5,333 nucleotides of DNA from Sphingomonadales bacterium. Lineage in GTDB: Bacteria > Pseudomonadota > Alphaproteobacteria > Sphingomonadales > Sphingomonadaceae. Each line of letters begins with the position of its first letter. The stretch's first letter is position 1. Below the pieces are notes generated by a model. That model was not told where the DNA came from. It ran no database searches and was given only the letters and a program-made list of their open reading frames with translations. Positions 1 to 5,147 of the stretch are shown here, piece by piece. The stretch lies in contig JAFLDC010000219.1 in assembly GCA_017302775.1 (NCBI GenBank), forward strand, positions 1-5,333, written 5' to 3'. The position numbers were made by a program, and so were the translations under genes.

Positions 1-404
1 AGGCGCTGCGCTACGTGACGCACTTCATCGCCGACCTGCATCAGCCGTTGCATGCCGGATTCGCCGACGACCGCGGTGGCAATCAGTACCAGGTGCAGGC
101 CTATGGTCGTGGGACGAACCTGCATGCCCTGTGGGACACCGGCCTCATAGAGAACTGGCCCGGTGGATTGCTAGCACTGAAGACGGAGGTAGAGGCCCGG
201 ATGGTGCCAAGCCAGAAGACCGACCCGGCAGCCTGGGCGGAGGCCTCATGCCGGATCGTGTCCAGCGAAGGCTTCTACCCTTCAGGACACCGGCTGGCTC
301 CGGACTACTTGTCCAAGTGGGCGCCGGTGATCGAGAGCCAGTTGTCGCTGGCAGCCCGCCGCCTTGCTGACGCTCTGAATGGCGCGCTCGACGGCGGGAA
401 GTGA
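1..404 (+). CDS. S1/P1-type nuclease, C-terminal part (5' end outside window)
   Basis: Partial gene read in the frame whose first whole codon is at 3; it is open to the left edge and ends with TGA at 402-404. About 133 residues are visible. The sequence HFIADLHQPLH (21-53) followed by GGN and then TNLHALWDTGLI (114-149) is the signature of the S1/P1 family of zinc-dependent single-strand nucleases. In that family the His and Asp residues of these motifs (here encoded at 21, 33, 51, 123 and 135) bind the three-zinc cluster and cut single-stranded DNA or RNA, giving 5'-phosphate ends. Family members are usually 260-300 residues and exported, so roughly half is missing, including the N-terminal zinc-binding residues and any signal peptide. 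It is convergent with the HU gene. The GTG at 15 lies inside the conserved motif region and is not a credible start. The family call is firm; substrate and location are inferred from the family. Confidence 0.88.
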   Translation, partial: ALRYVTHFIADLHQPLHAGFADDRGGNQYQVQAYGRGTNLHALWDTGLIENWPGGLLALKTEVEARMVPSQKTDPAAWAEASCRIVSSEGFYPSGHRLAPDYLSKWAPVIESQLSLAARRLADALNGALDGGK

Positions 405-2924: not shown

Positions 2925-3914
2925 TCACGAGGCCTTCAAAGCCGAGCGTTTGCGCCTCACGGCCGGCTTGGGTGGGGATGATGGGCTGGCTGCCAGCATC
3001 GCTGTCAGCCGTTCAAGGGTCTCGTGTAGCGCATCGGTTTGGTCACGAGCGGCGCGGGCATTGGCCTCCTGCGCTTGGGCCGCACCCTGGGCGTCTTGGC
3101 GCAAGGTGCGCTCTAGGAGAAGGTCTGCCATGGCCGCAGCGAGCTGGGCCTGAAGCTGCAACTCCCGCGTATGCGCTGCGTCCAGCTTGCGCTGGAGTTC
3201 GTCGGTGGCTGTGACAGCCTCGCGCCTCACAGCATCAGCTCTGGCGGCCCACCCTTCCGCAGCACGCTCGGCCTTTGCACGTGCAGACCGCTCACGCTCC
3301 AGTTCCATGGCAACTCTGCGATCCGCGGCGTCAGCGCGCTCCATAGCGGCAGCCACCTGCTGAGCAGCTGCCTTGGACTGGGAGGCCAGTTCCGCCTCCA
3401 GTTGTTGAATGCGCAGATGGCCGGCCGCCAAGGCTGTGCGAACCTCGTCAACTCGCGCCTTCTCGGAAGCTTCGTGGCGTAGAGCCTGCTCAAGGGCGTC
3501 CGCAACACGGTTCAGTTCCTCCTCGGCACGCCGTGTAGCCAGCGCGGAGGCCTCAAGAGCGGCCTCCGCCTGAATAGCGCGGGCCTCACTCGACTGAGCG
3601 CGCGCTTCGGCTTGGGCCATCCCCTGCGCAACACGCTGCTCGACGTCACGCTGCGCCTCAGCTTGGGCGGTCTCCCAGAGTTGCGAGGCGGCCGCATGCA
3701 CTGGATCAGGCACGCCGCCGGGCTCGGCGAATGCGGCCGAGTCCGCGATACGCGTGCCAAGGCCCTTGAACCAACTATCGAGGTGCGGGCCAACGGTATT
3801 GGGCGAGCCACGGCCCAGATGGTGCCGAACCCTTTCGATGGTTGGCCGTGAACCGCTGACCAGGAGGGCGTCGCAAGCCGTCCAGACGTCGTTTTCGGTG
3901 ATTCCGCGAGGCAT
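2925..3914 (-). CDS. tnpT: KfrA-like coiled-coil DNA-binding protein, probable TnpT of a Tn4651-type resolution module
   Basis: A 329-residue protein. Residues about 1-110 resemble the KfrA N-terminal DNA-binding domain: an initial helical segment (ITENDVWTACDALL), then a helix-turn-helix around PTIERVRHHLGRGSPNTVGPHLDSWFK. Residues about 80-308 are almost wholly Ala/Glu/Arg/Gln-rich and form a very long coiled coil. The tail PKPAVRRKRSALK is basic. An ideal AAGGAG (3921-3926, minus strand) lies six bases before the ATG, fixing the start. It is divergent from a tyrosine recombinase across an AT-rich gap. That pairing, and a length close to that I recall for Tn4651 TnpT (about 332 residues), point to the TnpT role: a helper that binds the resolution site and aids TnpS in resolving cointegrates. 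The alternative is a plasmid-type KfrA regulator or a helper of another integrating element. The domain call is firm; the TnpT name is an inference. Confidence 0.75.
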   Translation of the reverse strand: MPRGITENDVWTACDALLVSGSRPTIERVRHHLGRGSPNTVGPHLDSWFKGLGTRIADSAAFAEPGGVPDPVHAAASQLWETAQAEAQRDVEQRVAQGMAQAEARAQSSEARAIQAEAALEASALATRRAEEELNRVADALEQALRHEASEKARVDEVRTALAAGHLRIQQLEAELASQSKAAAQQVAAAMERADAADRRVAMELERERSARAKAERAAEGWAARADAVRREAVTATDELQRKLDAAHTRELQLQAQLAAAMADLLLERTLRQDAQGAAQAQEANARAARDQTDALHETLERLTAMLAASPSSPPKPAVRRKRSALKAS

Positions 3915-3920
3915 CCGTGT

Positions 3921-3926
3921 CTCCTT
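3921..3926 (-). promoter_or_regulatory. Ribosome binding site of the coiled-coil gene
   Basis: AAGGAG on the minus strand, six bases before the ATG at 3914. It is the strongest Shine-Dalgarno match in the window and fixes that start. Confidence 0.8.
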
Positions 3927-3951
3927 GAGGTCTACGCGTTGCGCCGCCCTA

Positions 3952-4019
3952 CTTTAGTCACGATAATAGATATTTACCGTGATCTGTAGTCCATTTTCAT
4001 ACTACATCATACATAGTAC
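3952..4019. other. Candidate recombination/resolution site (rst-like) between tnpT and tnpS
   Basis: The 129-bp gap between the divergent genes has an AT-rich middle (26 G+C of 85 bases from 3951 to 4035 by my count) against a GC-rich surround. It contains a 25-bp dyad at 3958-3982 with arms TCACGATAA and TTACCGTGA (8 of 9 paired) around a 7-base centre, the geometry of a tyrosine recombinase core site. Next to it lies a second dyad, TGTAGT (3985-3990) and ACTACA (4001-4006). The first half of that dyad repeats an element overlapping the core: CTTTAGTC (3952-3959) and CTGTAGTC (3984-3991), 32 bases or about three helical turns apart. A further TAGTA (4014-4018) follows. In Tn4651 the resolution site lies between tnpS and tnpT and combines a recombinase core with helper-binding repeats, so this site is the expected target of the two flanking proteins. 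The crossover position is inferred. Confidence 0.6.
3963..3968 (-). promoter_or_regulatory. Candidate -10 box of the coiled-coil gene inside the core dyad
   Basis: Minus-strand TATTAT (5/6 to the -10 consensus) lies within the 25-bp dyad, about 49 bases before the start codon. A weak -35, TGGACT, lies upstream at 19-base spacing. If real, any protein bound to the dyad would repress this gene. Confidence 0.35.
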
Positions 4020-4043
4020 GTTTGATTTAAAACACAAGGCAGC

Positions 4044-5147
4044 ATGATCGACCGTTCGCCGAAGCTCGAACTGGCCCCGCTGGCCGCGAGGTCCACCGAA
4101 GTCGCGCCGCTGGATCCCGAGCAGCTCGGGCCGATGGCCGAGGACGCTGTCCGCGCACTTGTTGCCGAGGGCGAGTCTGAAAACACGATCCGCAGCTACC
4201 GATCGGCGCTTCGGTACTGGGCCGCTTGGTTCGGGTTGCGGTACGCGAAGCCGATCGCCCTACCCGTACCTGTCCCGGCGGTCATCCAGTTCATCGTCGA
4301 CCACGCCGAGCGCAAGACCCGGACTGGCCTCAGTTGCGAGCTTCCCGAGTCGATCGACCTCGCACTGGTCCAGAGCGGCTTCAAGACTGCGCTCGGCCCG
4401 CCCGCACTGGCCACCCTCACACACCGGCTGAGCGTCTTGTCGAAGGTGCATCAGCTGAACCAGGCTCAGAACCCCTGTCAGGACCCCAAAGTCCGTGAGT
4501 TGATCTCCAAGTCCCGGCGCGCGTACGCCAAGCGCGGCGTCAGGCAGGACAAGAAGGCCGCCTTGACGAAGGAGCCACTTGAGGCCCTCCTCGCCACTTG
4601 CGACGAGTCGCTTCGCGGAGTACGCGATCGCGCCCTCCTGCTCTTCGCATGGTCCAGCGGCGGCAGACGCAGATCCGAAGTCACCGACGCCACGATGGAG
4701 AACGTCCGCAAAGTCGGCGAGCGCGCCTATGTCTTCACCCTACTGCGGACGAAGACCAATCAGTCGGGAAGCGAGAGGGAGGACAGCGCTAAACCTCTGG
4801 TCGGCAGGGCCGCCGACGCGCTCGAGGCGTGGCTCAGTCGAAGCGGCATCACCGCCGGCCCGATCTTCCGGCGCATCCGACGCGGCAATCGCGTCGCCGA
4901 GCCGCTCTCCCCTGCCGCCGTACGCGACATCGTCAAGGCGCGGGCCGCGGCAGCGGGCTTGCCCGACGATTTCTCAGCGCACTCGGTCCGATCAGGCTTC
5001 GTCACAGAGGCAGCACGCCAAAACATTCCCATCGGCGAGACGATGGCGTTGACCGGCCACGCTTCCGTGGCCACGGTCGTTGGCTACTTTCGGACTGCTG
5101 CATCGCTCGAAAGCAAGGCTGCCCGTCTTCTGGGTGAGGACTCATAG
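4044..5147 (+). CDS. tnpS: Tyrosine site-specific recombinase, probable TnpS cointegrate resolvase
   Basis: A complete 367-residue integrase-family recombinase. Residues about 30-165 form the helical core-binding domain (ESENTIRSYRSALRYWAAWFG is its first helix pair). Residues about 170-350 form the catalytic domain with all conserved residues: Arg209 in GGRRRSEV, Lys237 in RTKTNQ, His313 and Arg316 in AHSVRSGF, His339 in TGHASVATVVGYF, and the nucleophile Tyr348. His339 and Tyr348 are nine apart, as expected. The ATG at 4044 is preceded by AAGG (4036-4039). It is divergent from the KfrA-like gene, with a candidate core site between them. This matches TnpS of Tn4651-type Tn3-family transposons, which resolves cointegrates at rst with TnpT. 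As I recall, Tn4651 TnpS is somewhat shorter (about 323 residues), so this is a relative rather than the same protein. The alternative is an integrase of an unclassified element. The recombinase call is firm; the TnpS role is an inference. Confidence 0.8.
   Translation: MIDRSPKLELAPLAARSTEVAPLDPEQLGPMAEDAVRALVAEGESENTIRSYRSALRYWAAWFGLRYAKPIALPVPVPAVIQFIVDHAERKTRTGLSCELPESIDLALVQSGFKTALGPPALATLTHRLSVLSKVHQLNQAQNPCQDPKVRELISKSRRAYAKRGVRQDKKAALTKEPLEALLATCDESLRGVRDRALLLFAWSSGGRRRSEVTDATMENVRKVGERAYVFTLLRTKTNQSGSEREDSAKPLVGRAADALEAWLSRSGITAGPIFRRIRRGNRVAEPLSPAAVRDIVKARAAAAGLPDDFSAHSVRSGFVTEAARQNIPIGETMALTGHASVATVVGYFRTAASLESKAARLLGEDS

What the first reader, a model, noticed from the sequence alone, without database searches (positions are those of the whole stretch)
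2925..5147. Divergent KfrA-like protein and tyrosine recombinase form a TnpT/TnpS-type recombination module with no visible transposase
Seen: a 329-residue coiled-coil DNA-binding protein and a 367-residue recombinase with a complete R-K-HxxR-H-Y set, divergent across an AT-rich gap. Known: Tn4651-branch Tn3-family transposons (Tn4651, Tn5041, TnXax1) use a divergent tnpS-tnpT pair flanking the rst site. Inferred: this is such a module. No tnpA or Tn3 terminal repeat appears in the window, so it may be one end of a large transposon carrying cargo, a remnant, or a module kept for another purpose such as dimer resolution.
Basis: partly seen in the sequence, partly recalled or inferred. Interest (0 to 1): 0.7.

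Follow-up and report, generated by a model that had tools for sequence, protein, structure and literature searches.

The report
Cre-like recombinase module beside chromosome dif
The window holds a two-gene DNA recombination module, a Cre-like recombinase and a KfrA-type helper with a shared target site between them, whose relatives often sit at the chromosome terminus and in one bacterial lineage may have replaced the standard machinery that separates joined chromosomes.

Summary
In detail: a KfrA_N coiled-coil gene (2925-3914, -) and a complete tyrosine recombinase (4044-5147, +) diverge across an AT-rich gap. The Tn4651 reading is half right. The layout is that of tnpT-rst-tnpS, but the proteins are only 19% and 26% identical to those of pWW0, no Tn3 transposase was found in the closest genome, and the recombinase is nearest to Cre.

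The gap holds a core-like site, ATAA-N7-TTAT with 14-bp arms (IR1, 3953-3987) whose arms covary, and a second palindrome (IR2, 4006-4026) at rigid spacing. No attL/attR-like pair of sites was seen.

Unexpectedly, 24 of 57 relatives not known to be plasmid-borne lie within 10 kb of the XerCD site dif, always with dif upstream of the recombinase. In Sphaerotilus, 7 of 13 genomes lack XerCD-grade recombinases and dif; all 7 carry this recombinase (one as a fragment), and in the one sampled for GC skew it sits at the terminus. The other 6 keep XerCD and dif; 2 have the module too.

Best explanation: a Cre/TnpS-type, KfrA-assisted replicon-dimer resolution module, used by plasmids and recruited to chromosome termini. 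Replacement of XerCD is inferred, not shown. The window itself cannot be placed at a terminus.

The parts
2925..3914 (-). KfrA-like coiled-coil DNA-binding protein, 329 aa: proposed helper / regulator of the recombinase
   Evidence: PF11740 E 3.4e-27; 19% to TnpT of pWW0
3915..4043 (.). AT-rich intergenic gap with two inverted repeats: proposed composite resolution site and divergent promoters
3953..3966 (+). IR1 left arm (TTTAGTCACGATAA)
   Evidence: ATAA-N7-TTA[TC] in 66 of 78 loci, outer arm positions covary
3967..3973 (+). IR1 7-bp asymmetric spacer (TAGATAT): proposed crossover region
   Evidence: spacer varies between genera, constant (TTGAAGC) in the seven Sphaerotilus loci L040, L101, L129-L133
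3974..3987 (+). IR1 right arm (TTACCGTGATCTGT)
   Evidence: 8 of 14 positions complementary to the left arm in the window
4006..4026 (+). IR2, ATCATAC-N7-GTTTGAT: proposed accessory site, perhaps KfrA operator; starts 32 bp after the IR1 spacer
   Evidence: 39 of 66 loci match at least 11 of 14 positions, 37 of those 39 at exactly this distance, 0 of 66 shuffled; window 13 of 14
4044..5147 (+). Cre-like tyrosine recombinase, 367 aa, catalytic set R209 K237 H313 R316 H339 Y348
   Evidence: (Cre E 1.8e-23)

Best explanation
The pair is a self-contained resolution module for circular replicons. The Cre-like recombinase (4044-5147) binds as a dimer to IR1 (3953-3987). When a replicon has become a dimer, two copies of IR1 synapse and are exchanged across the 7-bp spacer, giving monomers. 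The asymmetric spacer favours resolution of direct repeats. KfrA (2925-3914) binds near IR1, most likely at IR2, represses the divergent promoters and shapes or licenses the synapse, as TnpT helps TnpS at rst. On plasmids the module would resolve plasmid multimers. In many Burkholderiales it has been recruited to the chromosome terminus beside dif, where chromosome dimers are resolved, and in a Sphaerotilus lineage it appears to have taken over that task after XerC, XerD and dif were lost. SHOWN: genes, site anatomy, arm covariation, no second site seen, terminus/dif association, joint absence of XerC/XerD-grade matches and dif with presence of the recombinase. INFERRED: catalysis at IR1, KfrA at IR2, dimer resolution as the function, replacement of XerCD. 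For the window itself only the module is shown; whether it lies on a chromosome or a plasmid is unknown.
For: Divergent pair in 34 of 49 genome loci. IR1 motif in 66 of 78 loci; arm positions 5-12 complementary in 290 of 480 cells against 250 (sd 7) when right arms are permuted among loci, p 0.0002. Perfect 14-bp arms in L035 and 11 perfect inner bp in L040. IR1 with at most 1 mismatch in 31 of 38 genomes or records, in 30 of them the module's own site, with an extra match in 2 of those 30. Nearest solved relative Cre, E 1.8e-23 against 1.3e-8 (an XerC-like protein) and 7.7e-5 (XerD); the fold search ranks Cre first. dif within 10 kb in 24 of 57 loci not known as plasmids, 25 of 25 dif hits (one on a plasmid) upstream of the recombinase. 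Module lies between the flanking samples of the GC-skew switch in 4 of 7 chromosomes sampled. No XerD-model match at 1e-60 in 7 of 13 Sphaerotilus genomes, dif pattern absent in the same 7 and present in the other 6, recombinase in 7 of those 7 (6 full, 1 fragment at a contig end) against 2 of 6; kfrA seen in 6 of the 7, one cut by a contig end. In G161 the recombinase lies about 18 kb away, while kfrA and IR1 are still beside dif.
Against: No recombination, binding or dimer assay. 33 of the 57 loci show no dif within 10 kb; G305's dif-like site is 1.76 Mb away and G332's 120 kb. Two of 7 skew profiles are unresolved and G322 is 0.1-0.2 Mb off. The seven XerCD-less genomes are probably one clade, so one loss event, and Fisher p 0.021 overstates independence; three of the seven have one weak XerD-model match (1e-31 to 1e-42). 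The XerC model itself was never run; XerC was judged from second matches of the XerD model. Seven other family genomes lack the XerD model without having this recombinase, so XerCD loss does not require it; no inventory was made of all recombinases of the XerCD-less genomes. IR1 could instead be a KfrA operator. 16 of the 54 loci with the recombinase show no kfrA, so KfrA may be dispensable. 12 of 78 loci show no IR1 motif and 7 of 38 genomes no match to its pattern; a second site with more than one mismatch would have been missed. The dif weight matrix was trained partly on the sites it then counts, though the first hits came from the E. coli consensus.
Confidence: 0.6

Rival explanations
1. 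Resolution module (TnpS-TnpT-rst) of a Tn4651-type Tn3-family transposon, of which the window shows one end or a remnant.
For: Same gene layout, same kind of site (the rst of TnXax1 is described as two pairs of inverted repeats, PMC7157771 passages); pWW0 gap also has ATAA-N7-TTAT. In W02, W03 and G012 a Tn3 transposase match lies about 8-28 kb from the module.
Against: 26% and 19% identity to TnpS and TnpT of pWW0; catalytic His is Trp in that TnpS; PF01526 not found in 10 of 15 genomes; conserved place beside dif and tatD; no long inverted repeat pair in the window.
Confidence: 0.08
2. Plasmid multimer-resolution module only; chromosomal copies beside dif are relics of plasmids or IMEX-like elements that XerCD integrated at dif, with no role in chromosome dimers.
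For: Relatives on many plasmids, with a divergent KfrA on pXCV183 and pJBCL41; pA82 carries a dif-like site 6.5 kb from the recombinase; about 6-7 kb with ORFs outside the shared families between dif and kfrA in L001 and L012; patchy, 23 of 299 family genomes.
Against: In none of the 25 loci with dif was a second dif seen within 10 kb on either side; pair found on either side of dif in mirror orientation (L005 against L018); catalytic residues and IR1 preserved in chromosomal copies; co-occurrence with XerCD/dif loss.
Confidence: 0.22
3. Integrase of a phage, ICE or genomic island, with IR1/IR2 serving only as KfrA operators.
For: Relatives annotated as site-specific integrase; PHROG integrase hits, best E 8.7e-20.
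Against: One IR1 in most genomes, no attL/attR-like pair seen; only 2 related loci in viral contigs; no relaxase or phage structural gene named in the four annotated plasmid neighbourhoods read; Cre-type, with a core-like recombinase site.
Confidence: 0.08

Closest known systems
TnpS/TnpT/rst of Tn4651 (pWW0)
   Same: Divergent tyrosine recombinase and helper, site between them, ATAA-N7-TTAT in the gap and a palindrome (read by eye)
   Different: 26%/19% protein identity, Trp for the catalytic His in TnpS, not in a Tn3 transposon; in pWW0 the palindrome lies on the tnpT side of the ATAA-N7-TTAT, here IR2 lies on the recombinase side of IR1
Cre/loxP of phage-plasmid P1
   Same: Closest solved sequence and fold; single recombinase, palindromic site with short asymmetric spacer (loxP layout recalled); separates dimers of the P1 genome (PMC8138268 passage)
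   Different: about 21% identity in the structural alignment; 7-bp spacer here against 8 in loxP (recalled); KfrA partner; chromosomal terminus location
Single-recombinase chromosome dimer resolution: XerS/difSL, XerH/difH, XerL/dif of Legionellales
   Same: One recombinase, site linked to the gene in XerS/XerH (PMC5357621 passages), palindromic site at the terminus and no XerCD homologs in Legionellales (PMC9765430 abstract and passages)
   Different: Recombinase is Cre-type by sequence and fold, KfrA partner gene, and sister genomes still carry XerCD/dif. Not compared directly with XerL.
Plasmid KfrA
   Same: KfrA_N domain
   Different: Here divergent to a recombinase with a core-like site between

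Membership tests
Tn4651-type TnpS/TnpT module | Divergent recombinase and coiled-coil helper with a site between | tested here: met
   that the site recombines is not shown
Tn4651-type TnpS/TnpT module | Close sequence kinship to TnpS and TnpT | tested here: not met
   26% and 19% identity to the pWW0 proteins; Trp in place of His339 in that TnpS. Tn5041 and TnXax1 were not aligned.
Tn4651-type TnpS/TnpT module | Carried in a Tn3-family transposon with tnpA and 38-48 bp ends | tested here: not met
   None seen in the window; PF01526 in 5 of 15 genomes only. The window's own flanks are not held.
XerC/XerD | Score above the NCBIfam equivalog cut-off | tested here: not met
   43.4 of 335 bits (XerC), 39.2 of 329.6 (XerD)
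Single-recombinase chromosome dimer resolution | XerC, XerD and dif absent from a genome that carries the system | tested here: met
   7 of 7 such Sphaerotilus genomes carry the recombinase, one as a fragment; judged by the XerD model and a dif pattern; not known for the window's genome
Single-recombinase chromosome dimer resolution | Site at the replication terminus | tested here: met
   XerCD-less G092: skew switch between samples at 4.27 and 4.50 Mb, module at 4.37 Mb; other chromosomes (mixed); not testable for the window
Single-recombinase chromosome dimer resolution | Recombination at the site resolves chromosome dimers in vivo | not testable with these tools
   needs an experiment
Phage/ICE integrase | Two copies of the site (attL/attR) flanking an element | tested here: not met
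   One match to the IR1 pattern in 29 of the 31 genomes or records with any (at most 1 mismatch)
Cre | Cre fold and complete R-K-H-R-H-Y set | tested here: inconclusive
   Cre is the best sequence and fold match but model pTM is only 0.57 and the canonical Cre residues are recalled

The most novel reading that the evidence does not exclude
A KfrA-assisted, Cre-type recombinase with its own terminus site has displaced XerCD/dif as the chromosome dimer resolution system in a Sphaerotilus lineage, and many other Burkholderiales, perhaps including the window's host, carry the intermediate state with both systems side by side at the terminus. This would be a chromosome dimer resolution system built from a plasmid/transposon resolution module rather than from the Xer family.
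Probability: 0.5. Interest if true: 0.85.

Novelty: new variant of a known kind. Interest (0 to 1): 0.74.

Why it matters
Chromosome dimer resolution is nearly universal. Kono et al. 2011 (PMC3025954, passages) named alternative machinery in species without dif/XerCD as an area for future research, and the Legionellales system was reported in 2022 (PMC9765430, abstract). Here a different recombinase class, with a KfrA partner, is found at the terminus beside dif, and in one genus there are genomes with XerCD/dif alone, with both, and with the module without XerCD/dif. That makes the replacement of such a system directly testable. It also suggests a function for chromosomal KfrA-recombinase pairs of the kind annotated only as 'DNA-binding protein' and 'site-specific integrase' on plasmids.

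Tried and rejected
Tn4651 transposon membership: tested by identity to the pWW0 proteins, transposase search and repeat search; rejected. Phage or ICE integrase: rejected because no second site was seen and only two viral-contig relatives were found. KfrA_N in the other XerCD-less genomes (G171, G200, G214, G247, G278) looked promising, but none has a recombinase of this family in the stretch fetched around it or elsewhere at E 1e-8: rejected as further cases. A first dif search with a gamma-type consensus found 2 of 18; the regional consensus differs, so the scan was redone. A weak dif-like stretch in the window at 1042 (11.8 bits; shuffled loci reach 13.5) lies at the start of a gene and is not claimed. 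Window flank 1-2924 does not match the module's contig in the closest genome: its hits in G001 (SRAP and short pieces) are on other contigs, so the window could not be placed. The plasmid DNA search found only the recombinase part in the ten rows listed of 87 records. Literature: searches listed no paper whose title or abstract start links KfrA and a tyrosine recombinase to chromosome dimers; only the listed rows were seen, and only CC0/CC BY/CC BY-SA PubMed Central papers are searchable, so this is no proof of absence. The work on the Tn4651 crossover site is known to me by recall only; nothing of it was seen beyond PMC7157771.
Full report
What is there. The window encodes a KfrA_N coiled-coil protein (2925-3914, -) and a tyrosine recombinase (4044-5147, +). 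They diverge across a 129-bp gap of GC about 0.46 between flanks of 0.62-0.67. The recombinase has the full catalytic set. It is far below the XerC and XerD cut-offs. Its family profile (23 rows, TnpS of pWW0 among them) matches Cre best among solved structures, E 1.8e-23, against 1.3e-8 for an XerC-like protein, 7.7e-5 for XerD and 1.6e-4 for XerH. An AlphaFold2 model (pLDDT 76, pTM 0.57) also ranks Cre complexes first.

Relatives. One scan of genome contigs gave 52 loci, 49 of which hold the recombinase. The nearest is a Rubrivivax MAG at 95% (L001; its KfrA is 82% identical). A divergent kfrA-like gene lies within 1.5 kb in 34 of the 49; of the 15 without, 5 have under 400 bp of upstream sequence. 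The tblastn search of plasmids found matches in 2253 records, nearly all distant (6 of 2253 at 60-80% identity, the rest below). Of the four plasmid neighbourhoods read around this recombinase, pXCV183 and pJBCL41 have the divergent pair, pA82 has it with about 1 kb between, and Variovorax WDL1 plasmid 3 lacks kfrA. Viral contigs gave 2 loci.

Site anatomy. An inverted repeat (IR1) built as 14-bp arms around a 7-bp spacer, with ATAA-N7-TTA[TC] at its heart, lies upstream of the recombinase in 66 of 78 loci examined. The 12 without it include truncated loci and L087 (see below). The inner motif was the search key and is no evidence in itself; where a gap held more than one match the most complementary was kept. 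The outer positions are evidence: arm positions 5-12 are complementary in 290 of 480 cells over 60 distinct sites, against 250 (sd 7) after permuting right arms among loci (p 0.0002; relatedness not removed). L035 has perfect 14-bp arms, L040 11 perfect inner bases; the window has 8 of 14. In the window the arms are 3953-3966 and 3974-3987. A second repeat (IR2, ATCATAC-N7-GTATGAT, a pattern taken from these loci; window 4006-4026) matches at 11 or more of 14 positions in 39 of 66 loci and 0 of 66 shuffled, and starts exactly 32 bp after the IR1 spacer in 37 of those 39. Such fixed geometry suggests one composite site. The IR1 pattern with up to one mismatch occurs in 31 of 38 genomes or records and not in 7; in 30 of the 31 it is the module's own site, 2 of these 30 have one extra match, and in one genome (G029) the only match is elsewhere. 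So no attL/attR-like pair was seen.

Against the transposon reading. TnpS and TnpT of pWW0 are 26% and 19% identical to the window proteins in multiple alignments; in pairwise BLAST TnpS reaches E 3e-11 and TnpT had no match above the listing limit. The Tn3 transposase model matches in 8 of 19 genomes or records searched, 5 of the 15 genomes, and not in the closest genome; in G012, W02 and W03 a match lies about 8-28 kb from the module. The works-like relation to TnpS/TnpT stands: PMC7157771 (passages) describes rst as lying between divergent tnpS and tnpT with two pairs of inverted repeats, and the pWW0 gap holds an ATAA-N7-TTAT.

The terminus. A tatD gene lies within 10 kb of the recombinase in 17 of 79 loci, in 14 of them with a tmk-holB match and in most with an ankyrin-repeat gene (gene names by my reading of the translations). 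A dif-like sequence was then found beside the module with the E. coli consensus and a weight matrix (the maximum over 180 shuffled loci was 13.5 bits, threshold used 16). dif lies within 10 kb of the recombinase start in 25 of 72 loci, or 24 of the 57 loci with at least 1.5 kb upstream and not known to me as plasmids (L023, identical in its recombinase to a plasmid record, is still among the 57). All 25 are upstream of the recombinase, the side on which kfrA lies when present (L021 and L039 show no kfrA), although slightly more downstream than upstream sequence was searched. dif is in either orientation (19 and 6). L005 shows the module on the other side of dif in mirror image, kfrA again nearest dif. 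Sampled GC skew puts the module between the last positive and first negative sample in G092, G013, G161 and G180, 0.1-0.2 Mb off in G322, and unresolved in G332 and G305. Exceptions are real: 33 of 57 loci show no dif within 10 kb, G332's dif-like site is 120 kb away, and G305's 1.76 Mb. In G161 the recombinase (L087) lies about 18 kb from a kfrA with IR1, which are within about 1.1 kb of a dif-like site; that an insertion parted them is my inference.

Loss of XerCD. Of 29 module-bearing genomes searched with the XerD model, 27 have a match above its cut-off and 26 of these a second, weaker one that I take for XerC; G034 and G092 have none at 1e-60. The XerC model was not run. Their genus (13 genomes; the title of L040 says Sphaerotilus) splits cleanly: 6 have both, 7 have neither (one weak match of 1e-31 to 1e-42 in each of three of the seven). 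The dif pattern is found in 6 of those 6 (G332 with one mismatch) and 0 of those 7. The recombinase is in 6 of the 7 as a full gene and in the seventh as a C-terminal fragment at a contig end, and in 2 of the 6 that keep XerCD; kfrA is seen in 6 of the 7, in one cut by a contig end. The seven are probably one clade, so this is one event, not seven. In XerCD-less L040 the module directly follows tatD, with no dif or ankyrin gene found between; in L101 tatD is several kb off. In the family sample 8 of 299 genomes lack the XerD model at 1e-60; only G092 of these has the recombinase, so other solutions to XerCD loss exist.

Tree. The recombinase tree (77 rows, quick method; three short rows dropped) largely groups by genus (Sphaerotilus, Polaromonas/Rhodoferax, Variovorax, Acidovorax/Diaphorobacter) with plasmid copies interspersed and many forks unresolved, as expected for inheritance within genera plus transfer between plasmids and chromosomes. 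The module of one XerCD-bearing Sphaerotilus (G203) falls outside the others of its genus. The window groups with L001 and other Sphaerotilaceae or unclassified Burkholderiales.

Mechanism. Most likely the recombinase exchanges strands at IR1 between the two copies in a replicon dimer, with KfrA bound at IR2 as regulator and architectural partner. In XerCD-less L040 and L101 the IR1 arms agree at 13 and 11 of 14 while IR2 matches its pattern at 9 and 8 of 14, which fits IR1 as the core; but L130 has 10 and 11, so this is a weak argument. The assignment of KfrA to IR2 is inference; IR1 as a KfrA operator is not excluded.

Verdict. The window holds an ordinary member of an interesting family. 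The family works like TnpS/TnpT/rst and Cre/lox, is not tied to a Tn4651 transposon, and by location and co-occurrence is a candidate chromosome dimer resolution system. In the searches made no listed paper described it by title or abstract start.

Noticed in passing
genomes G085, G171, G200, G214, G247, G278: Six other genomes of the family sample have no XerD-model match at 1e-60 and no good dif, but no recombinase of this family; five have KfrA_N proteins without such a recombinase beside them. How they resolve chromosome dimers is unknown.
   Followed up: partly
L035:6486-7531: Ankyrin gene and kfrA stop codons are about 3 bp apart, no dif, and IR1 has perfect 14-bp arms: a predicted second lineage without XerCD/dif, not tested.
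   Followed up: no
L005 and L018: The module lies on opposite sides of dif in mirror orientation, kfrA nearest dif in both, which suggests repeated recruitment or a dif-centred insertion mechanism.
   Followed up: partly
L053 (pA82), about 6.5 kb upstream of the recombinase: A dif-like sequence (25 bits) on a 248-kb plasmid, in line with large enterobacterial replicons carrying XerCD sites (PMC11724359, abstract).
   Followed up: no
G013 (Diaphorobacter aerolatus): Only one XerC/XerD-type match at 1e-60 although dif is present beside the module.
   Followed up: no
window 3-404, 437-856, 1015-1494, 2003-2656: Neighbours: C-terminal part of an S1/P1 nuclease, an HU-like DNA-binding protein with a lysine/alanine-rich N-terminus, an HTH protein and a SRAP protein; the DNA matches to the HU-like and SRAP genes in related genomes are on contigs other than the module's.
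   Followed up: partly
L029 and L031 (Variovorax sp. J22R24): Two contigs of one genome both begin about 60 bp upstream of an IR1 with the same spacer, followed by a recombinase; possibly two replicons carrying the module.
   Followed up: no
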